Shown here: positions 21,045 through 32,783 of the stretch, piece by piece
Position numbering within the stretch: position 1 is the stretch's first letter
How the letters are laid out: the number at the start of each line of letters is the position of its first letter
Source: an uncultured Chlorobiaceae bacterium
GTDB lineage: Bacteria > Bacteroidota > Chlorobiia > Chlorobiales > Chlorobiaceae
NCBI GenBank assembly: GCA_903840935.1
Contig: CAIMHT010000056.1
Coordinates: 1-32,783, forward strand
Length of the DNA stretch: 32,783 nucleotides
Direction: 5' to 3'
Made by a program: the position numbers and the translations under genes
Notes under the pieces: model-generated
Database searches by the model: none
What the model was told of the DNA's origin: nothing
The model's input: the letters and a program-made list of their open reading frames with translations, nothing else

Positions 21045-21944
21045 CTATGGCTGGCCTTTCTGAATGTCAGGCACGTTTTTTTCATGGATGATTCTGGTGA
21101 AAATTCCTGCGAGTGATGAGATGGCCGAAATAACGAAAAATATGAGCGACAGTGCAACACCGGCGTTTGTTCCAAGCTTTACAAATCCAAGCAAATAAAA
21201 AAATGTTATTTCACGGGCTCCAGCTCCTCCTATCGTGACCGGAATAATGGTGGCTATCGTCGATAGCAGAAATATCGCCAGATAGTCAATAACGTTGGCA
21301 TTCTGGGACATGGCTTTCAGGATAAAAAATACTGATATCAACTGGGTAATCTGAATCAGCAGCGATTCAACTGAGGTGATGGTAAAGAGCTCGATAAACT
21401 GTTTATAGAAGAGCTTGTTCAGAAGCAACGCCAGTGGGTAGATTGCGACGAGCACGACCCAAGAATAAGGCACCAACTGGGGAAGGTGCAAGGCAAAACT
21501 GCTTGGTAGCAGGAGGATGAGTGAGAGAAAGATCAGTGCGATGATTCCTGATAAACGGTCCCAAAACACTGCATGAAAGACATTGATCATTTTTATGCCG
21601 TGGTTTTTCTGCAATACATAGATTTTGTAGCCGTCACCGCCGACACCTCCCGGAATAAAAAGATTATAGAACATCCCGAGATAGTAAAGCTTAAGGCTGT
21701 ATATCGTTGAGAGCTCAATGCCGATAGCCTTGAAAAAGCGGTTCAGGCGCATCGCATTGATGAGCTTGGAAATATTGAAAAAAAGGAGGGAAAGCAAAAG
21801 GTACCAGGGGTTGGCATTGCGGATGATGTCCATAAGTTTGGCAACATCGGTCTTTCTCAGGACAAGATAAAGTGCCGTGCTGGTGACCAGAATCTGCAGT
21901 AACGTTTTCAGCAGCTTTTTTGGGTTGATTTTACTGTTTGCCAA
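21045..21944 (-). CDS. UPF0104/LPG synthase transmembrane-region family protein
   Basis: This is an integral membrane protein with about eight hydrophobic segments. It shows the family landmarks YYLGMFYNLFIPGGVGGDGYK and, near the C-terminus, PVTIGGAGAREITFFYLLG. Such proteins (flippase-like, related to the membrane part of lysylphosphatidylglycerol synthase) often accompany glycosyltransferases and are proposed to move or modify lipid-linked sugars. The frame is open from a TTG at 22013, but that start lies 83 bases inside the GT2 gene and adds a hydrophilic tail unlike the family. TTG at 21944, giving MANSKINPKKLLKTLLQ and 299 residues with a 14-base overlap, is preferred. It is the last gene of a four-gene minus-strand cassette. 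Confidence 0.82.
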   Translation of the reverse strand: MANSKINPKKLLKTLLQILVTSTALYLVLRKTDVAKLMDIIRNANPWYLLLSLLFFNISKLINAMRLNRFFKAIGIELSTIYSLKLYYLGMFYNLFIPGGVGGDGYKIYVLQKNHGIKMINVFHAVFWDRLSGIIALIFLSLILLLPSSFALHLPQLVPYSWVVLVAIYPLALLLNKLFYKQFIELFTITSVESLLIQITQLISVFFILKAMSQNANVIDYLAIFLLSTIATIIPVTIGGAGAREITFFYLLGFVKLGTNAGVALSLIFFVISAISSLAGIFTRIIHEKNVPDIQKGQP

Positions 21945-22878
21945 CGATCTTTTTGATGATATAGGGTTTTTTGTTCTGTGACTCGTAGTAGGTGCGCATG
22001 ATAAATTCCGCAATAAAGCCGGTCGTAATGAGCTGAATGCCGATAAAGGTCATGATGATCCCCAGAGAGAGCAGGGGACGACCGCCGATCTCTTCACCGA
22101 GAATTTTCAGGGCCAGAAGGTACATGTTCATTGCCACGCCTGTAAAGAGGGAAAGAAAGCCAAGCGTACCGAAAAGATGCATTGGCTTCTGGCTGTATTT
22201 CTGGAAGAAGAGCATGAAGAGCAGATCGCTCAATACTTTGAAGGTGCGCCCTATACCGTATTTTGATTTTCCGAACTTTCTTGGGTGATGCCGCACATCA
22301 ACCTCTTGCATGCTTGCACCATAGAGTTGGACGAGTACGGGTATGAAGCGGTGCAGTTCACCATACAGACCAAGATTTTTGGCAATATCCTGTTTGAACA
22401 CCTTCAGTGTACAGCCATAGTCCCGGATGTGCACCTTCGTCAGATTTCTGATAAGGGCATTGGCTATCTTGCTGGGAATTATCCTCAAAAATAACCCATC
22501 CTGCCGTTTTGCCCGCCGGCCTGCGACAACATCAAGATCATGGTCATGAAGGTACTGCATCATCATTGGGATATCCAAAGGATCGTTCTCCAGATCTCCG
22601 TCCATAGTGGCTATCAGTTCACCACGCGCATGATCGATACCGGCAGCTATCGCGGTTGTCTGCCCATAATTCTTGTTGAGTATGACGAGTTGTGCATTGG
22701 CTGGAGCGTGTGCCCGGATTTCATCCACGGTGTTATCGGTAGAACCATCGTCAACCAGAATGATCTCATGCTCAACATCAGCAAGCGAGAGGGCGAGAGC
22801 AGCAAACAGGGGTTTTATATTCTCAACTTCATTCATAACCGGTATGACCACCGAAAGCTTCAATGTGTCAGGATTCAT
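21931..22878 (-). CDS. GT2 family glycosyltransferase, ArnC/dolichyl-phosphate-mannose-synthase type
   Basis: The first ~230 residues form a GT-A catalytic domain: SVVIPVMNEVENI near 9-21, the nucleotide-binding VDDGSTDNT near 42-50, NYGQTTAIAAGI near 70-81 and the metal-binding MDGDLENDP near 92-100. HHPRKFGKSKYG near 195-206 is the conserved activation/acceptor loop. Two transmembrane helices (about 235-258 and 270-295) close the protein. Relatives such as ArnC, DPM1 and GtrB transfer a sugar from a nucleotide donor to undecaprenyl or dolichyl phosphate on the cytoplasmic face. The donor sugar is unknown. It overlaps the upstream GT39 gene by 4 bases, which points to translational coupling, and presumably supplies that enzyme's lipid-linked donor. 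Confidence 0.9.
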   Translation of the reverse strand: MNPDTLKLSVVIPVMNEVENIKPLFAALALSLADVEHEIILVDDGSTDNTVDEIRAHAPANAQLVILNKNYGQTTAIAAGIDHARGELIATMDGDLENDPLDIPMMMQYLHDHDLDVVAGRRAKRQDGLFLRIIPSKIANALIRNLTKVHIRDYGCTLKVFKQDIAKNLGLYGELHRFIPVLVQLYGASMQEVDVRHHPRKFGKSKYGIGRTFKVLSDLLFMLFFQKYSQKPMHLFGTLGFLSLFTGVAMNMYLLALKILGEEIGGRPLLSLGIIMTFIGIQLITTGFIAEFIMRTYYESQNKKPYIIKKIVGKQ

Positions 22879-24425
22879 TGCCTCAGTTTTGCCAGTACAA
22901 TACCGTTTTTGTGATAGAGTAGGGCTGGATTATCAAGCAGCTCAAGTCCTTTGACAGTTGTCAAAACAATCTCGCCTGGTCTGGGTGTACGCTTTTCAAC
23001 AAAAGATTCCGAATATAGTAAAAAAGAGGGCTTCCAGGTTTTCCACATCACTATTTTATAGCCCTTATCTTTTGCAATAAGAGCAGCCTCTTTTACCGGC
23101 TCCTGCATCAGTTTTCCGGCAATAGGCATAAGGTAGATATTGACAAGAAGCGCAAAGATAAAGCCGGTAGCGATCAGTTTCCATTCGGCAGACAAACGAG
23201 GCAGAAATTGTATGAAAAAGACTCCAATTATGGCGGCACCGATGATCAGCAGATAGTTCTGATCTGTAAGCCCTGCGACACCCTCAAGGAGTGCTCTGAT
23301 ATAGCTGTCATCTATCTTTTGCAACGCCACCTGCAGGAGCAGCGGGAGGCTTGCAAAAGTGGCAAGTTGAAGCAGCGGCCAGAGAGTAAAAAGCCGGGGA
23401 TGGAGGCTTAAAGGCAGTGCCCGGGCCATAAGGATAAAGAGCGGCGTATAGCCGTAGATCATGTAGTGTGGCAGTTTTGTACCTGAAAAAGAGAAAAAGA
23501 GAAAGACAAAGCCGAACCAGATCAGAAGAAAGCGGTTAACACTGTCGGAAAGCAGGTTTTTGAGATTGAAAAGAACGGTGAAAATGAGGCCGGTAAATGG
23601 TGTGAGGCCAAGAATGATGACAGGAATATAATAGAAGAGGGAGCCCGAGTGCCCCTCGAAAGAGGAGTTAAACCGGTTGATGTTATGTGTGAAAAAAAAT
23701 CCCTCAACAAAGGCCATTCCCTGATCACGGAATTCAAACAGGTACCATGGCAGGGCAATGGCCAAAAAGAGCATGACTCCTGTCGGGTTGAAGAGCATCC
23801 TGAACCATGTTTTCAATGATTTCTCCTGCAGTGAGAAGAGAAAGGTCACGGCAACGGGAATAATGACGGCAATCGGACCTTTCGTGAGCATACCGAACCC
23901 GGCGCAAGCAAAAGCAAGATAGAGCAACGGTTTTGAACCTGTTTTGTAATGGAGGAGCAGGCTGAACATGGTGATGGCAAGAAAGCAGTTCAGCACTCCA
24001 TCAGCAATGGCCGCCCTTGCAATAACCAGCACTTGCAGCGACAGCACCATCATTGCAGCCGCAAAAAATGCCTTGTGGTTGCCAATCTCCCTGCGCATAA
24101 ATAGAAAAATCGATGTTGCCCAAACGGTTCCTGCAAGGGCGGAAGGAAGGCGAAAGGCAAACTCATTGATTCCGAAAAGCTTGACAGAGGCAAGTTGCAG
24201 CCAGTAAATCAAGATTGGCTTGTCAAAACGGGGCGTGCCGTTCAGCTTGGTTGTCAGATAATTAGTACTGACCATCATCTCCCTCGTTGCCTCACTGAAT
24301 GCTCCTTCATCGACATCAAAAAGAGGTGCAGATCCAAGGTAAAGGAAAAAGCTGGCAAAGATGAGGATTGCCAGTGCTGCCAAAAACCAGCCAGTCTCAG
24401 ATTTTATTGTGTTCAGAGGCCTCAA
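22875..24425 (-). CDS. ArnT-like GT39 family glycosyltransferase
   Basis: This 516-residue polytopic membrane protein has about twelve hydrophobic segments and a small C-terminal domain. The first periplasmic loop contains APLFDVDEGAFSEATREMM near 32-50, the Asp-Glu motif of ArnT/PMT enzymes, followed by FDKPILIYWLQL. Family members move a sugar from a polyprenyl-phosphate carrier to an acceptor such as lipid A or protein at the periplasmic face. The acceptor here is not known; lipid A or another envelope glycolipid is inferred from the adjacent PAP2 and GT2 genes. The start is TTG at 24425, inside the end of the PAP2 gene (29-base overlap), with no clear Shine-Dalgarno sequence. Confidence 0.88.
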   Translation of the reverse strand: MRPLNTIKSETGWFLAALAILIFASFFLYLGSAPLFDVDEGAFSEATREMMVSTNYLTTKLNGTPRFDKPILIYWLQLASVKLFGINEFAFRLPSALAGTVWATSIFLFMRREIGNHKAFFAAAMMVLSLQVLVIARAAIADGVLNCFLAITMFSLLLHYKTGSKPLLYLAFACAGFGMLTKGPIAVIIPVAVTFLFSLQEKSLKTWFRMLFNPTGVMLFLAIALPWYLFEFRDQGMAFVEGFFFTHNINRFNSSFEGHSGSLFYYIPVIILGLTPFTGLIFTVLFNLKNLLSDSVNRFLLIWFGFVFLFFSFSGTKLPHYMIYGYTPLFILMARALPLSLHPRLFTLWPLLQLATFASLPLLLQVALQKIDDSYIRALLEGVAGLTDQNYLLIIGAAIIGVFFIQFLPRLSAEWKLIATGFIFALLVNIYLMPIAGKLMQEPVKEAALIAKDKGYKIVMWKTWKPSFLLYSESFVEKRTPRPGEIVLTTVKGLELLDNPALLYHKNGIVLAKLRQ

Positions 24426-25023
24426 ATTTCGATTTGAAATAAAGTTTATAAAGCAGCAGAGTGGAAACTATTCCCAGAAAAGAGCCGGCAATGACATCGC
24501 TGATATAGTGCTCGGCAAGCACAATACGACTGAATGCGATCAGCAGACCCCAAAAAAGAGAGACCAATCGCCATCGCGGGTAAAGGATGGCAAGGAGGAT
24601 GGCAACACTCATTGCTGTTGCCGAATGGCCGGAGGGAAAAGAGGTCCATGCGTTTTCCCAATGGAAAAAGTCAAAACCGTAGAGATGTTCATGAAAATAG
24701 AGTTTTGGTCTTGCCCTGCCAGCGACATATTTGACAAGATCGGCAGTTATTCCCGAAATCGCGACGGTAGAGAAGAGGAAGAGGCCCAAGGAGGCCCAAT
24801 AGGAGTTCCAGTTGCGAAAAAAGGCAAAGAGCAGCAACCCTCCGGCCAGGTAGCCGAGTGAGTCGCCAAAGAGCGTTATCTTGCTGAAAACCTTGTGAAA
24901 TAAAGTTGTATCAATGGTATGGAACCACAACGCAGTTTGTATGTCTGCAAAAAGATAGCTGAGGAGACAGAGTAACGCAACGGTCGTCGTGACGATACTC
25001 CATTGAAGGGTTTTGTTCATCAT
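24397..25023 (-). CDS. PAP2-family membrane phosphatase
   Basis: This 208-residue membrane protein carries the three-part PAP2 (type 2 phosphatidic acid phosphatase) signature: KYVAGRARPKL near 118-128, PSGHSATAMS near 149-158 and SRIVLAEHYISDVIAG near 184-199, so the catalytic His pair and Arg/Lys phosphate clamp are intact. Six hydrophobic segments surround them. Substrates in the family include undecaprenyl diphosphate, lipid A phosphates and phosphatidylglycerol phosphate. As the first gene of a cassette with polyprenyl-sugar glycosyltransferases, it might recycle the carrier or remove a phosphate from lipid A; this is inference. Two adjacent ATG codons (25023 and 25020) are possible starts. 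Confidence 0.88.
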   Translation of the reverse strand: MMNKTLQWSIVTTTVALLCLLSYLFADIQTALWFHTIDTTLFHKVFSKITLFGDSLGYLAGGLLLFAFFRNWNSYWASLGLFLFSTVAISGITADLVKYVAGRARPKLYFHEHLYGFDFFHWENAWTSFPSGHSATAMSVAILLAILYPRWRLVSLFWGLLIAFSRIVLAEHYISDVIAGSFLGIVSTLLLYKLYFKSKFEASEHNKI

Positions 25024-27534: not shown

Positions 27535-28059
27535 ATGAAAAAACTCTTATTACTTTTTGCTCTCCTGCTTGCAGGATGTACCGGTGTTCCGCAGGGAATT
27601 ACGGTTGTTGATGATTTCTCTCTTAATCGTTATCTCGGCACCTGGCATGAAATTGTCCGTCTCGATAACCGCTTTGAAAAAACGCTTGATCCGGTATCGG
27701 CCACCTATTCGCTGGCCCCGGATGGCAGCGTCAAGGTGGTGAACAAGGGTTATGACCGGAAAGAACAAAAATGGAAAACCATTCAGGGGCGCGGCGTTTT
27801 TGTCGATGATAAAAAAACGACCGAGGGTGCCCTAAAGGTCTCTTTCTTTGGCCCTTTTTATGCGAGTTACAATGTGATTGATCTCGACAAGGCGGGATAT
27901 CGCTGGGCTATGGTCTGCGGTCGCGACAAATCCTATTTCTGGATTTTGTCGAAAGATTCTGTGATGGCACCGGGGCAGCTCAGTGCGCTTGTGGTCAAAG
28001 CAGCAACGCTTGGTTTTGATACCTCAAAGCTGCGCTATCTGGGCAAGAAAAAGCCGTAA
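27535..28059 (+). CDS. blc: outer-membrane lipocalin lipoprotein
   Basis: This 174-residue protein begins with a lipoprotein signal peptide: MKK, a leucine-rich core and the lipobox LLAGC with the lipidated Cys at position 15. The residue after Cys is Thr, compatible with export to the outer membrane. The mature part carries the lipocalin signature YLGTWHEIVRLDNRFEK near 33-49 and the later YRWAMVCGRDKSYFWILSKD near 122-141, as in bacterial Blc. Blc binds lysophospholipids or fatty acids and is thought to help store or carry lipids under envelope stress. It has its own promoter candidate with an overlapping inverted repeat and is followed by hairpins at 28063-28128. Confidence 0.92.
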   Translation: MKKLLLLFALLLAGCTGVPQGITVVDDFSLNRYLGTWHEIVRLDNRFEKTLDPVSATYSLAPDGSVKVVNKGYDRKEQKWKTIQGRGVFVDDKKTTEGALKVSFFGPFYASYNVIDLDKAGYRWAMVCGRDKSYFWILSKDSVMAPGQLSALVVKAATLGFDTSKLRYLGKKKP

Positions 28060-28062
28060 AAC

Positions 28063-28128
28063 TCCAGCCCGTATCTGCAAGAGAAGGGCTGGAAGTGTAC
28101 TGAAACGTGAATACAGTACCTCCAGCCC
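28063..28128. terminator. overlapping alternative hairpins between blc and the repeat-protein gene
   Basis: GGGCTGGA at 28086-28093 can pair with TCCAGCCC on its left (28063-28070) or with TCCAGCCC on its right (28121-28128). The right-hand pairing is extended by GTACTG (28097-28102) with CAGTAC (28114-28119). The element lies between two convergent stop codons and probably terminates transcription from both sides. Confidence 0.65.
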
Positions 28129-28154
28129 GGAACTCTCTCTGACAGGACGTTTTT

Positions 28155-31100
28155 TTATGTGGTAATCTCCACTGTCCAGATCCTGTCACCAATGCGCAAC
28201 ACAACTTTCACCGGAAGCGACTCCGCAGTGGCACCACTCACCGTGAAAACCCTGGCTGCGGGATCATACTGCAGCCAGTTTGGTAGCGGAGCGCCACCGT
28301 CAAGGGTGATTGCCTCGGGAACTCCTGTTTCAGCGATCACCTTTTGTACCTCTTCAGGAAGCGGAATGGTGAACGTCGTTCCAAGAGTAAGTACGGCCTG
28401 GGGAATAGTGACAACAATCAGTCCTGTGCTCTGGTCTGAGGGCGGCGCTACATACTCTACATTAAGCCCGAGAGCTGATGTGATGATCGGTGATTGTAAC
28501 CCCAATATTACAGGTGGCGGCAGTGGTACAAGCGGAAGCTCTGGCGGCAATGTTTCAGCAGTCAAGATACTTGCAGTGGCTGTTGCCTGGTCGATAATGG
28601 TGTAGTTATTTCTGTCGATACCTCCGTAGGTTGTGGTCAATGTAACCACTTTTGTGGTGCCGATATTTGGATCGCTGAATTTCCCGGTTGCCGACAGATA
28701 GAGATCGTCAGGGCTAATCCAGCCGTTGAAGACGACACCGGAGGTGTTGACCATAGCCTTGGTGTTTCCGTCGTAGTTCTTGTCGTATGCCGTTAGACCG
28801 CTTATGGTGAGGGGCTTTGCGGTGATATTGGCCATAGTTGTTGTCTGATTCGCGATGCGGTAGTTACTACGGTCACTGCCGCTCAGATTCAGGGTGCTCA
28901 CTGTTACGGTTTTGCCGGTACCCACGTTTTTGGTGTCAAATTCTGCCAAGGTACTGCCAGTAGCCAGATCAACTGCGTCGCTACCAATCACGCCAGTCAG
29001 GTAGCCATAGTTGCTGATTGTCGCAGTTTTGTTGCCGTCGTAGACCTTGTTGCTTGCGGTCAGGCCAGTGAGCGAGAGAGTCTTCGCGGTGATATCAGCC
29101 GTAGTGGTCTGGTTCGCAATGCTGTAGTTACCACTGTTACCGCCGGTCAGATTCAGATTGCTTACCGTTACGGTTTTGCCGGTTCCTACGTTTTTGTTGT
29201 CAAATGCTGCCGAGGCACTGCCCGTATCCAGACCAACGGTGTCGCTGCCAATCACGCCGCTCAGGGTGCCATAACTGCTGATTGTCGCAGTTTTGTTGCC
29301 GTCGTAGACCTTGTTGTCTGCGGTCAGGCCAATGAGCGTGAGCGCAAGAGCTCTTGCCGTGATATTTGCCGTAGTGGTCTGGTTTGCAATGCTGTAGTTA
29401 CTGCTGTCGCTGCCGTTCAGATTCAGACTGATCACCCTTACGGTTTTATCGGTGCCTACGTTTTGATTGTCAAATGCTGCCGAGGCACTGCCAGTATCCA
29501 GATCAACGGCTTCTGTGCCGATCACGCCAGTCAGGGTGCCATAACTGCTGATAGTCGCATCGGTGTTACCGTCGTAGACCTTGTTGTCTGCTGTCAGGCC
29601 AGTGAGTGAAAGAGGCTTCACGGTGATATCAGCATAAGTTTCAGTCTGGTCGGTAATGTCGTAGTTATCCTTGTCTGCACCTCCGTAACTGCTTGTCAGT
29701 GTGACGGTTTTGCTATTACCTATATTTTTGTTATCGAATTCACCGGTTACCGATGTCAAACTCAGCTTGTCACCGCTCACTATATTGTTGATGGTTGCAT
29801 CTTCAGTGTCTATCGTTGCTGTCTTGTTACCGTCATAGATCTTGTTTTCTGCGGTGATGCCTGAAACGGTGAGAGCTTTCTTATCTATCGTCAGTGTTCC
29901 GGCGGTTGAATAAGAGAGGGCGTAGCCAAGCAGACTTGTCAGCCCTGATGGAGTCAGGGTGTGCTCCCCTGCCGTGTAGTGACCAGATGTCGATTTTGGA
30001 TCAGCAACAGCTATGGCTACACTCCCTGAAAATGCCTGTGCAAAGGTATCACCATTTTGGAAGGCGCTTGTATTGGTGGCAAGTGTTCCCGGATCTTCGC
30101 CATAAAAGATGGACTTTGAAATGGCTTTAACGGTTATGGTTGGTTTTTCGCGGTAGATGGCATTTTTGCCTGCCGACAGCGGTGTAGTGTAATTCGTTGT
30201 TGATTCATCGCTGTTGTATCGGAAATGGCTTGTTTCTGAGCCCGATCCGATTAGAGCTGTCAAGCCGTTACTTTCTGAGACACTTCCGGTGAAGAAGGCT
30301 GCAATTCCACCCAGCCCTGTCGTTATCATCGGAGATCCATCAATGATGATGTTGCCACCGGTTGCTATACCTGCAACCTCACATTGGCCCGCGTTGAAAA
30401 TGATTGCTGATGGTGTGGCATTCGTCGTAGTAACAGGGCCGGAGATGGTTAAGTTGCCAGTCCGTGTGGCCACATTGATCGGGCCTGTTGCGGTAATTCC
30501 GGAAACAGTAAGTTCATTTCCGTCAACAAGCGAAACAGCGCTGGCATTCTCCACCAGAACAGTTGAAAAGTTATTGGAGGTATTCGTGAACGTCACATTA
30601 CCGGAACCAGATGCGAATGTCAGTGTGCCTGCGGTGGCTGTTACGGCTCCAGAAGCGGTGATATCCCTGTTCGCGGTAGTGAGTGTTGTTGGCGCACCGA
30701 AAGTGGTCGAGCCGCTATAGGTTTGCGTCCCAACGGTTTTCACTGAATTACCGTTGATAAAAAGTGTCGTTGCCACATTACTGGTGAATGAATCCAGTAC
30801 TCCTGTATTCCCTAAAGCCCCTCCAAGGGTAATGTTGCCGGAGCCATTGATATTTAATGCATAAGCGCCATCGATAGTGCCGGACAGGGTGAGCATTCCG
30901 CTCTCTGAGTTGATCCGGGTTGCGCCGGAGAGAGTGACAGTACCTCCATAACTGTTGTTGCCGCTGACGTTGCGGAGTGCGCCACCTGAATCGAAACCAT
31001 TGCCGGATAGTGTAAGAGCTTCTGCGCCGATGGCAATATCTCCGAAAAGTTCGAGTGTCGCGCCCGAATTCACTGTGGTACCTTTAATATTTGTGCCCAA

Positions 31101-32783
31101 TGCTGTCGAGCTGCCTGCTCTCAGCGTTCCTCCGCTGATTGTTGTCACACCAGTATAGGTGTTCTCACCGGATAATATCAGCGTACCTGCATTTAATTTT
31201 GTCAATACCCCTGTCCCGCCAAGAATAGCCGAGATTGTTGTGGTTCCGGTTGTGTTGTTGACCGTATAGCTGGTGCCGGTTAACACGCCAGTGCTGCCTG
31301 TTATACTGCCGTTGGTGAGCTTGATAGCACCTACCGTATCATTATTGGTTCCAATATTTAAGATTCCCCCATCAACGGTCACGCTGCCGGTGTTGGACAA
31401 AGTATTTGTTAAATGCCCAAGTATCAGTGTGCCATCGTTGATGGTGGTTCCGCCAGTGTAGGTGTTAGTCCTGCCAAGCGTCAGCGTACCAGTGCCGGTT
31501 TTGGTCAGCGTACTGCTTCCTGTAGCAATCGGGTCTGCGACCGTAATGTTACCTGTTCCCCCAAATGTTATGTTATTCGTTCCGCTGATCGAATTACCCG
31601 ATGCCACATTAAGTGTGAGTAAGCCGTTGTCGGCAATAATACTACTGTCACTGTCCAGTGTGATCAACCCTTTGTATCGAGCTGCTGTTGCAGAACTGTT
31701 GGTCAAGGCTCCAGCACCGCCTGCGCCCGTTCCGTTGAGCGTCAAAGGCTCAGCCGTACCCAGTGAGAATCCGTTCAGGTCGAGAGTTGCACCGGAGGCG
31801 ACGATTGTTCCTGCATCCGTGGTACCCAATGGTGTGTTCGTTGCACCGCCTGCCGCACCGAGCATCAGTGTTCCGTCGTTGATCATTGTGAGTCCCGTAT
31901 AGCTGTTTGCGCCCAAAAGCATCCATGTCCCGGTGCCATTTTTAGTCACGGTACCGGAAGTGGTGCCAATAATGCTTGCAAGGCTGCTTGCGAGAGCTGT
32001 CCCATCAAGAGTCAACCCAAACGTTGCTCCGGTGATGATGCCGGTGTTTGACAGTACGATGTCGCCGTTGTTTGCAATAATGCTACTGTCACTGCCCAGT
32101 GTAATCAACCCTTTGAAGGTAACTGCTGTTGCAGAACTGTTGGTCAAGGCTCCAGCACCGCCTGCGCCCGTTCCGTTGAGCGTCAAAGACTCAGCCGTAC
32201 CCAGTGAGAATCCGTTCAGGTCGAGAGTTGCACCGGAAGCGACGGTTGTTCCTTCACCCGTGGTACCCAATGGCGTTTTGGTTGCGCTGCCTGCCGCACC
32301 AAGCATCAGTGTTCCGTCGTTGATCATTGTGAGTCCCGTATAGCTGTTTGCGCCCGAAAGCATCCATGTCCCGGTGCCATTTTTAGTCACGGTACCGGAA
32401 GTGGTGCCAATAATGCTTGCAAGGCTGCTTGCGGGAGCAGTTCCATCAAGAGTCAACCCAAACGTTGCTCCGGTGATGATGCCGGTGTTTGACAGTACGA
32501 TGTCGCCGTTGTTTGCAATAATGCTACTGTCACTGCCCAGTGTGATCAACCCTTTCCAAGTAGCTGCTGTTGCAGAACTGTTGGTCAAGGCTCCAGCACC
32601 GCCTGCGCCTGTTCCGTTGAGCGTCAAAGGCTCAGCCGTACCCAGTGAGAATCCGTTCAGGTCGAGAGTTGCACCGGAGGCGACGGTTGTTTTCGCACCT
32701 GTGGTCCCCAGTGGTGTGTTCGTTGTATCGCCTGCTGCACCAAGCATCAGTGTTCCGTCATTGATTACTGTCGCGCCGGTATA
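28155..32783 (-). CDS. giant secreted repeat protein (autotransporter/filamentous-haemagglutinin-like), N-terminus beyond window
   Basis: The frame is open to the right edge, so about 1542 C-terminal residues are seen and the true start is outside. N to C: (1) about 870 residues of passenger-type beta-strand repeats (plus 30150-32783) with recurring GTGTWML/TLTLxGxNxYTGxTxINDGTLxLG motifs, typical of PATR (autotransporter-associated) repeats forming a beta helix; (2) an MBG-like domain (about 29885-30150, with SIFYGEDPGTL); (3) five YDG-type repeats (about 28570-29885), each with the YDGN motif and a GxxxxNY ending; (4) a proline-rich linker, PPELPLVPLPPPV; (5) a ~100-residue terminal module ending RIGDRIWTVEITT. 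No C-terminal beta-barrel is visible, so secretion by a separate partner (type Vb) or another route is likely. The probable role is adhesion or surface structure; the family is broad and function is inferred from architecture only. Confidence 0.82.
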   Translation of the reverse strand, partial: YTGATVINDGTLMLGAAGDTTNTPLGTTGAKTTVASGATLDLNGFSLGTAEPLTLNGTGAGGAGALTNSSATAATWKGLITLGSDSSIIANNGDIVLSNTGIITGATFGLTLDGTAPASSLASIIGTTSGTVTKNGTGTWMLSGANSYTGLTMINDGTLMLGAAGSATKTPLGTTGEGTTVASGATLDLNGFSLGTAESLTLNGTGAGGAGALTNSSATAVTFKGLITLGSDSSIIANNGDIVLSNTGIITGATFGLTLDGTALASSLASIIGTTSGTVTKNGTGTWMLLGANSYTGLTMINDGTLMLGAAGGATNTPLGTTDAGTIVASGATLDLNGFSLGTAEPLTLNGTGAGGAGALTNSSATAARYKGLITLDSDSSIIADNGLLTLNVASGNSISGTNNITFGGTGNITVADPIATGSSTLTKTGTGTLTLGRTNTYTGGTTINDGTLILGHLTNTLSNTGSVTVDGGILNIGTNNDTVGAIKLTNGSITGSTGVLTGTSYTVNNTTGTTTISAILGGTGVLTKLNAGTLILSGENTYTGVTTISGGTLRAGSSTALGTNIKGTTVNSGATLELFGDIAIGAEALTLSGNGFDSGGALRNVSGNNSYGGTVTLSGATRINSESGMLTLSGTIDGAYALNINGSGNITLGGALGNTGVLDSFTSNVATTLFINGNSVKTVGTQTYSGSTTFGAPTTLTTANRDITASGAVTATAGTLTFASGSGNVTFTNTSNNFSTVLVENASAVSLVDGNELTVSGITATGPINVATRTGNLTISGPVTTTNATPSAIIFNAGQCEVAGIATGGNIIIDGSPMITTGLGGIAAFFTGSVSESNGLTALIGSGSETSHFRYNSDESTTNYTTPLSAGKNAIYREKPTITVKAISKSIFYGEDPGTLATNTSAFQNGDTFAQAFSGSVAIAVADPKSTSGHYTAGEHTLTPSGLTSLLGYALSYSTAGTLTIDKKALTVSGITAENKIYDGNKTATIDTEDATINNIVSGDKLSLTSVTGEFDNKNIGNSKTVTLTSSYGGADKDNYDITDQTETYADITVKPLSLTGLTADNKVYDGNTDATISSYGTLTGVIGTEAVDLDTGSASAAFDNQNVGTDKTVRVISLNLNGSDSSNYSIANQTTTANITARALALTLIGLTADNKVYDGNKTATISSYGTLSGVIGSDTVGLDTGSASAAFDNKNVGTGKTVTVSNLNLTGGNSGNYSIANQTTTADITAKTLSLTGLTASNKVYDGNKTATISNYGYLTGVIGSDAVDLATGSTLAEFDTKNVGTGKTVTVSTLNLSGSDRSNYRIANQTTTMANITAKPLTISGLTAYDKNYDGNTKAMVNTSGVVFNGWISPDDLYLSATGKFSDPNIGTTKVVTLTTTYGGIDRNNYTIIDQATATASILTAETLPPELPLVPLPPPVILGLQSPIITSALGLNVEYVAPPSDQSTGLIVVTIPQAVLTLGTTFTIPLPEEVQKVIAETGVPEAITLDGGAPLPNWLQYDPAARVFTVSGATAESLPVKVVLRIGDRIWTVEITT
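28570..29885 (-). repeat. five tandem YDG-type domain repeats, 261-270 bp each
   Basis: The plus-strand complement of the YDGN codons recurs at about 28768, 29035, 29299, 29569 and 29830, giving spacings of 267, 264, 270 and 261 bases (87-90 codons). The three central copies are nearly alike (NKVYDGN, then GVIG, then NYSIANQTTT); the outer two are more diverged and share a GGxDxxNY variant. Confidence 0.85.
31624..32783 (-). repeat. 441-bp near-identical tandem repeat, 2.6 copies to window edge
   Basis: Copies run 31624-32064, 32065-32505 and 32506-32783 (cut by the window edge). The period of exactly 441 bases (147 codons) was checked at three anchor points (31663, 32104 and 32545). Differences between copies are scattered single bases. 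Each unit encodes one PATR-type segment beginning near LTLNGTGAGGAGALTNSSAT. Confidence 0.9.

What the first reader, a model, noticed from the sequence alone, without database searches (positions are those of the whole stretch)
28155..32783. Very large secreted protein combining PATR, MBG and YDG repeat types and running off the window
At least 1542 residues are present without a start. The architecture (beta-helix passenger repeats, then an MBG-like unit, five YDG units, a Pro-rich linker and an end module) suggests a long stalk-like surface or secreted adhesin. Green sulfur bacteria in phototrophic consortia are known to encode giant surface proteins implicated in cell-cell contact; whether this belongs to that class is inference.
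Basis: partly seen in the sequence, partly recalled or inferred. Interest (0 to 1): 0.55.

Follow-up and report, generated by a model that had tools for sequence, protein, structure and literature searches.

The report
Truncated Chlorobium two-partner secreted surface protein
This is the back half of a long repeat-rich surface protein that a green sulfur bacterium most likely exports through a dedicated outer-membrane pore; its front end is missing because the assembly breaks inside a repeat, and the one unusual part is a small conserved module that closes the protein.

Summary
A 1542-residue open frame runs on the minus strand from the stop at 28155 to the contig end, with PATR, one MBG unit, five YDG units, a Pro-rich linker and an end module. 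The window is a whole contig that stops in a 441-bp tandem array. The missing start was not found in the 85.7%-complete assembly.

A relative (MAG Kiruna2_bin-2272, uncultured Chlorobiaceae) holds the intact gene in the same setting: 80% identical over the last 681 residues, same lipocalin gene downstream. There it has 2302 aa, begins with ESPR and a TPS domain, and follows a TpsB gene. So this is a TpsA exoprotein of type Vb secretion, akin to EtpA and HMW1.

A genus survey shows that TpsA proteins with this module end in it, within 4 residues of the C-terminus (13 of 13). It is free of cysteine and resembles the dystroglycan/cadherin fold. T9SS marker SprA_N was absent from the family. Whether the module tethers the protein to the cell is untested. 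The consortium link is unsupported.

The parts
28155..32783 (-). 3' part of a tpsA gene: 1542 codons plus stop, open at the contig edge
   Evidence: intact orthologue L042:8819-15727
31623..32765 (-). 441-bp (147-aa) in-frame tandem array, 2.6 copies, in which the contig ends
   Evidence: copies 1 and 2 are 92% identical in protein, dN/dS 0.31; no further copy found elsewhere in the assembly
30174..32783 (-). PATR/TIGR02601 repeat region, presumed right-handed beta-helix stalk (residues about 1-870; outer limits inferred)
   Evidence: model of residues 509-861 is all-beta but of low confidence (pLDDT 62) and its best structure matches are not significant
29889..30137 (-). MBG_2 domain
   Evidence: PF18676, 6.1e-8
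28560..29888 (-). five YDG domains (outer limits approximate)
   Evidence: PF18657, 5 stretches; YDGN motifs
28500..28556 (-). Pro-rich linker
   Evidence: read from the translation
28158..28430 (-). C-terminal module (called CTM here), dystroglycan/He_PIG-like, residues 1452-1542
   Evidence: alignment A1; He_PIG below cut-off; PDB profile match to dystroglycan; model and fold search
27535..28059 (+). convergent lipocalin gene; shared neighbour that marks the locus as orthologous
   Evidence: PF08212, 2.6e-34; window 27535-31163 matches L042 16342-12722 at 85% DNA identity

Best explanation
It is the C-terminal two thirds or so of a TpsA exoprotein of a two-partner (type Vb) secretion system of a Chlorobium-genus green sulfur bacterium. 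Inferred working: Sec export with an ESPR-type signal peptide; recognition of the N-terminal TPS domain by the POTRA domains of a TpsB pore encoded just upstream; passage of the unfolded chain to the surface, where the PATR region folds into a beta-helical stalk that carries MBG and YDG beta domains; the protein closes with a cysteine-free dystroglycan/cadherin-like module. The most likely role is a surface fibre for adhesion or cell-cell contact. The contig stops because its 147-aa tandem repeats broke the short-read assembly. Shown: domain content, orthology, TpsB partner and N-terminus in the relative. Inferred: the N-terminus and TpsB in this organism, secretion, surface location, adhesion.
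For: G043 (record CAIRXW010000047.1) has the orthologue, 80% identical over 681 of 681 residues, with collinear DNA through the lipocalin. Its protein has ESPR 5.6e-8, TPS 4.7e-35, 7 PATR and 5 YDG; the upstream gene has POTRA_2 1.2e-11 and ShlB 9.1e-28. Nearest solved relatives of its sequence: EtpA 5.6e-90, HMW1 secretion domain 4.1e-42, HxuA 4e-34 for TpsA; CdiB 2.5e-18 for TpsB. In the genus, of 13 complete TpsA frames ending in the same module, 9 have TpsB upstream and none has it downstream. In a second genus, 4 of 4 loci examined show TpsB upstream, ESPR-type start, TPS domain and the module, two of them in single-contig genomes. Contig breaks are typical for such genes: 24 of 48 P0003-like TpsA frames run off a contig end, against 4 of 38 C19-like frames.
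Against: The N-terminus and a TpsB of its own were not found in this assembly; the only TPS domain and the only ShlB-type partner found there belong to a different, complete pair on C19, and the other POTRA_2 hit, on C100, lies in a BamA-like protein by its sequence. A split or decayed gene in this organism cannot be excluded. No expression or adhesion data exist here.
Confidence: 0.9

Rival explanations
1. A classical autotransporter (type Va): the PATR passenger is carried by its own C-terminal beta-barrel.
For: PATR and TIGR02601 are common in autotransporter passengers (recalled from family names); a weak PDB match to IcsA, 4.6e-5, over the PATR part of the relative.
Against: No autotransporter barrel in the Pfam or NCBIfam scans; the protein ends in a module of about 90 residues; the relative has a TPS domain and a TpsB neighbour.
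Confidence: 0.02
2. A type I secreted RTX/Bap-like giant adhesin of the kind linked to phototrophic consortia.
For: Such giants exist in green sulfur bacteria (passages of PMC4053972 and PMC7762298); He_PIG-like domains occur in other very large ORFs of the genus (weak hits).
Against: No RTX domain; the orthologue has a TPS N-terminus and TpsB, and no ABC transporter or HlyD gene was looked for or needed.
Confidence: 0.02
3. The end module is a type IX secretion sorting domain (also a C-terminal Ig-like fold in this phylum).
For: Position at the extreme C-terminus and Ig-like fold; T9SS is common in the phylum.
Against: SprA_N was found in 116 of 148 phylum genomes, none of them from the window's family (31 of the sampled genomes by my count); no sorting-domain family among the matches of 23 members.
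Confidence: 0.02
4. The gene is a remnant: a C-terminal fragment left by decay, not a live gene cut by assembly.
For: Some TPS frames of the genus stop early without a module (the 'other' class, for example G189:C40, G023:C6, G190).
Against: No stop in 1542 codons; dN/dS below 1 throughout; the contig ends in a repeat shared with no other contig, as expected of an assembly break.
Confidence: 0.06

Closest known systems
EtpA / HMW1 / HxuA type TpsA exoproteins (type Vb secretion)
   Same: In the orthologue: ESPR, N-terminal TPS domain, long repetitive beta-rich body, upstream TpsB with POTRA_2 and ShlB domains.
   Different: MBG and YDG domains instead of EtpA-type repeats; a dystroglycan-like terminal module without cysteine, where HMW1 and HxuA carry a disulfide loop (passage of PMC5422565). 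No HMW1C-type glycosyltransferase was searched for.
FHA (FhaB/FhaC) of Bordetella
   Same: TPS route, filamentous beta-helix, adhesion role known for FHA.
   Different: No FhaB prodomain was recognised; sequence match of the N-terminus is to EtpA, HMW1 and HxuA, FHA not listed at E 0.01.
Second TPS class of the same genus (C19 pair of this genome)
   Same: TpsA plus TpsB; C-terminus also He_PIG-like (12 of 12 members; profile match to A1 94.9% over 48 columns).
   Different: No ESPR, TpsB lies downstream (28 of 28 with that tail), DUF5650 repeats in the C19 protein, full-length He_PIG.
Giant consortium proteins Cag_0614 / Cag_0616
   Same: Very large repetitive proteins of green sulfur bacteria.
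   Different: Described as RTX/hemagglutinin-like in PMC4053972 (passages); no sequence comparison done here.

Membership tests
TpsA exoprotein, type Vb | N-terminal TPS secretion domain (PF05860) | tested here: inconclusive
   Missing in the window by truncation; present in the 80% identical orthologue, 4.7e-35.
TpsA exoprotein, type Vb | Cognate TpsB gene (POTRA_2 plus ShlB barrel) next to it | tested here: inconclusive
   Beyond the contig end here; directly upstream in the orthologue. In this assembly only the C19 partner was found.
TpsA exoprotein, type Vb | Long repetitive beta-rich body without its own barrel | tested here: met
   PATR, MBG and YDG units, no barrel family.
ESPR-bearing type V proteins | ESPR (PF13018) at the N-terminus | tested here: inconclusive
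   Orthologue 5.6e-8; own genome no match, as its N-terminus is missing.
HMW1-type anchored TpsA | Cysteine pair near the C-terminus that forms the anchoring loop | tested here: not met
   The only cysteine is residue 801; none in the last 150 residues of 20 of 20 module-bearing frames.
He_PIG (PF05345) domain | Score over the curated cut-off | tested here: not met
   Window module 16.5 bits against 24; 13 of 23 members match at E up to 1, best 8.4e-6. Kinship is likely, formal membership is not met for the window.
T9SS sorting domain | T9SS present and sorting-domain profile match | tested here: not met
   SprA_N not found in the window's genome or family; no sorting-domain family.
CdiA toxins | VENN-type motif and C-terminal toxin with immunity gene | tested here: not met
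   C-terminus is the beta module; the next gene is a convergent lipocalin. Motif definition from PMC5422565.
RTX/T1SS consortium giants | RTX repeats and T1SS cluster | tested here: inconclusive
   No RTX family; no direct comparison with Cag_0614 or Cag_0616.

The most novel reading that the evidence does not exclude
Chlorobiaceae TpsA proteins close with a dystroglycan/cadherin-like module that folds in the periplasm and blocks the TpsB pore, so that the fibre stays tethered by its C-terminus: a cysteine-free alternative to the HMW1 disulfide plug. Two TPS classes with opposite gene order would both use such a terminal fold.
Probability: 0.22. Interest if true: 0.55.

Novelty: new member of a known kind. 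Interest (0 to 1): 0.3.

Why it matters
It moves an orphan fragment into a defined pathway and separates it from the consortium giants. ESPR-TPS pairs occur in two genera of Chlorobiaceae (12 of 148 sampled phylum genomes, all 12 in that family), whereas a reference title seen in PMC5422565 calls ESPR phylogenetically restricted and PMC4104836 calls the FhaC-type TpsB group almost exclusively proteobacterial (passages). If the terminal module is a tether, how TPS fibres stay on cells without a disulfide becomes a simple deletion experiment. Such genes also break assemblies often, so their number and length in short-read MAGs are underestimated.

Tried and rejected
Rejected: autotransporter, T1SS giant, T9SS cargo, CdiA-like toxin, decayed remnant (see rivals and membership test).

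Led nowhere or weak: search for the lost N-terminus in the assembly with the DNA, the protein, PF05860 and the orthologue found only C56 itself and the C19 paralogue. Structure of residues 509-861: low confidence (pLDDT 62.4, pTM 0.59); Foldseek gave no match at E 0.001, though many of its weak rows are beta-helix proteins. The genome-contig scan gave only five loci, one in Chlorobiaceae, the others YDG proteins of Thermoguttaceae, Verrucomicrobiota, Paludibacteraceae and Gammaproteobacteria. Literature searches for YDG/MBG domains returned other meanings of the words; 'green sulfur bacteria' with 'filamentous hemagglutinin' gave 0 papers; 'extended signal peptide' with 'Chlorobi' gave 2, of which the passages seen do not report ESPR in Chlorobi. 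These searches cover an open-licence library only.

Results against my reading of the end module: it evolves faster than the YDG part between the two orthologues (dN/dS 0.72 against 0.28), which fits an exposed tip as well as a plug; its fold match is middling (best Z 7.9 over 83 residues, in the range the tool calls possibly only a common arrangement) and the dystroglycan Foldseek E-value is 5.5e-4 with TM 0.46; not all TpsA of the genus end so: 3 complete frames end in a hydrophobic segment, 12 others in unrelated or early-stopped tails.

Rows dropped before counts: of 96 TPS hits, 7 short or edge hits were not fetched (G025:C279, G012:C201, G082:C142, G009:C72, G019:C81, G018:C17:7248, G042:C35), 1 was missed by my phmmer step (G036:C46) and 2 long genes were cut by the 20-kb limit (G013:C1, G006:C43:109497); 86 remain. 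ESPR is a motif of my own, written from the sequences seen, not the Pfam model. The TPS classes rest on which of two query domains scores higher.

Full report
What is there. The frame is on the minus strand, 32783 down to the stop at 28155, open at the edge, 1542 residues. Pfam, NCBIfam and a scan of the MBG segment alone confirm four PATR stretches, one MBG_2 and five YDG domains. A Pro-rich linker and a module of about 90 residues end the protein. The three middle YDG units are 69-72% identical to each other, the outer two 39-49% to the rest.

Why it is cut. The window is the whole contig C56 of a 2.017-Mb, 100-contig genome that is 85.7% complete. The contig ends in a 441-bp array, 2.6 copies, 93% matches; the unit was found nowhere else in the assembly. 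The N-terminus was not found either: PF05860 and the orthologue's whole TpsA hit only a separate, complete TpsA on C19. That pair is a second, different system of this genome.

The intact orthologue. Among 81 genomes, 22 matched the C-terminal 681 residues; G043 stood out with 80% identity over the full length. It is CAIRXW010000047.1, MAG of an uncultured Chlorobiaceae bacterium, isolate Kiruna2_bin-2272. Window 27535-31163 aligns with it at 85% DNA identity through the downstream lipocalin. The gene there encodes 2302 residues with ESPR, TPS domain, 7 PATR and 5 YDG, 51 bp after a 567-aa TpsB gene with POTRA_2 and ShlB domains. In the solved structures its nearest relatives are EtpA, the HMW1 secretion domain and HxuA; the TpsB is nearest to CdiB. 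The repeat array is larger in the window than in G043, so the full length of the window's protein cannot be given; about 2300 residues or more is a guess from the orthologue.

The family. Of 61 genomes of the genus 44 have a TPS domain. I classed 86 of the 96 hits. Two kinds stand apart. One has no ESPR motif, TpsB directly downstream and a He_PIG tail: 28 of 28 frames with that tail. The other, the window's kind, has TpsB upstream where one was seen and mostly an ESPR motif. Thirteen complete TPS frames end in the window's module: 10 carry the ESPR motif, one lacks its N-terminus at a contig edge, 2 lack the motif; 9 have TpsB upstream, 4 show none within the stretch fetched, none has it downstream. 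Their lengths run from 974 to 4184 residues while both ends stay alike, which fits a stalk of variable length between fixed ends. In the second genus of the family, 4 of 4 loci have the same layout, two of them in single-contig genomes. Of P0003-like frames 24 of 48 run off a contig, of C19-like frames 4 of 38: the break seen in the window is usual for this gene type.

The end module. In 23 aligned members eight columns are invariant, among them two Trp. In 13 of 13 complete TPS frames it ends 0-4 residues before the C-terminus. Pfam sees He_PIG below its cut-off, a profile search of solved structures gives dystroglycan at 5.8e-4, and the model (pLDDT 75, pTM 0.67, two sequences only) again gives dystroglycan first (Foldseek 5.5e-4; Z 7.9 over 83 residues). 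The Z is middling, but sequence and structure agree. The tails of the other TPS class match it by profile (94.9%, 48 columns) and score He_PIG in 12 of 12. Strong hits to the module (over 70 bits) in the phylum sample lie in 11 genomes, all of the window's family. None of 20 module-bearing frames has a cysteine in its last 150 residues, so an HMW1-type disulfide plug is excluded. The type IX marker SprA_N is in 116 of 148 phylum genomes but in none from this family.

How it works. Established for TPS systems in general, from passages of PMC5422565 and PMC8151025: Sec export, slow-down by ESPR, TpsB recognition, folding at the surface; HMW1 and HxuA keep the C-terminus in the periplasm. Inferred here: the same route, a beta-helical stalk, a role in adhesion. 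Open: whether the end module is a plug at the cell or a tip at the far end. Its faster change between the two orthologues (dN/dS 0.72) fits a tip at least as well.

What it is not. Passages on the consortium giants describe RTX-like, type I proteins. The orthologue's host is known only as a MAG, and nothing here ties it to consortia. Verdict: a real, truncated member of a known kind, with a conserved terminal module that deserves one deletion experiment.

Noticed in passing
L007:2332-8869 (G000 contig C19): A second, complete TPS pair in the same genome: TpsA of 1591 aa with DUF5650 repeats and a He_PIG tail, TpsB of 582 aa downstream; no ESPR. An orthologous pair with nearly the same tail lies in G043 contig C45.
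   Followed up: partly
L058, L059, L146 (G027:C62, G017:C211, G191:C84): TpsA proteins that end in a conserved hydrophobic segment (GTLGYLTVYLFAMYNKK-like) instead of the beta module; possibly another way of holding the C-terminus.
   Followed up: no
L043, L044, L124 (G006:C43): Three very large tpsA genes in a row: 3855, 4184 and at least 8729 codons by the open frame given; the last reaches towards the contig end.
   Followed up: no
L049, L050 (G013:C1): A TpsA frame of about 5030 aa with ESPR, upstream TpsB and the end module; left out of the counts because it spans two fetched stretches.
   Followed up: partly
window 21045-25023: Minus-strand cluster: LPG_synthase_TM protein, family 2 glycosyltransferase, PMT_2 protein and PAP2 phosphatase; looks like lipid or surface glycan modification.
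   Followed up: no
window 28060-28155: Short GC-rich inverted repeats between the convergent lipocalin and tpsA genes; one terminator-like site was called at 28070-28051 on the minus strand, against 0.3 expected in shuffles.
   Followed up: no
L110, L115, L116, L111: TPS frames that stop early without an end module (G189, G190, G023); possible frameshifts, assembly errors or decay.
   Followed up: no
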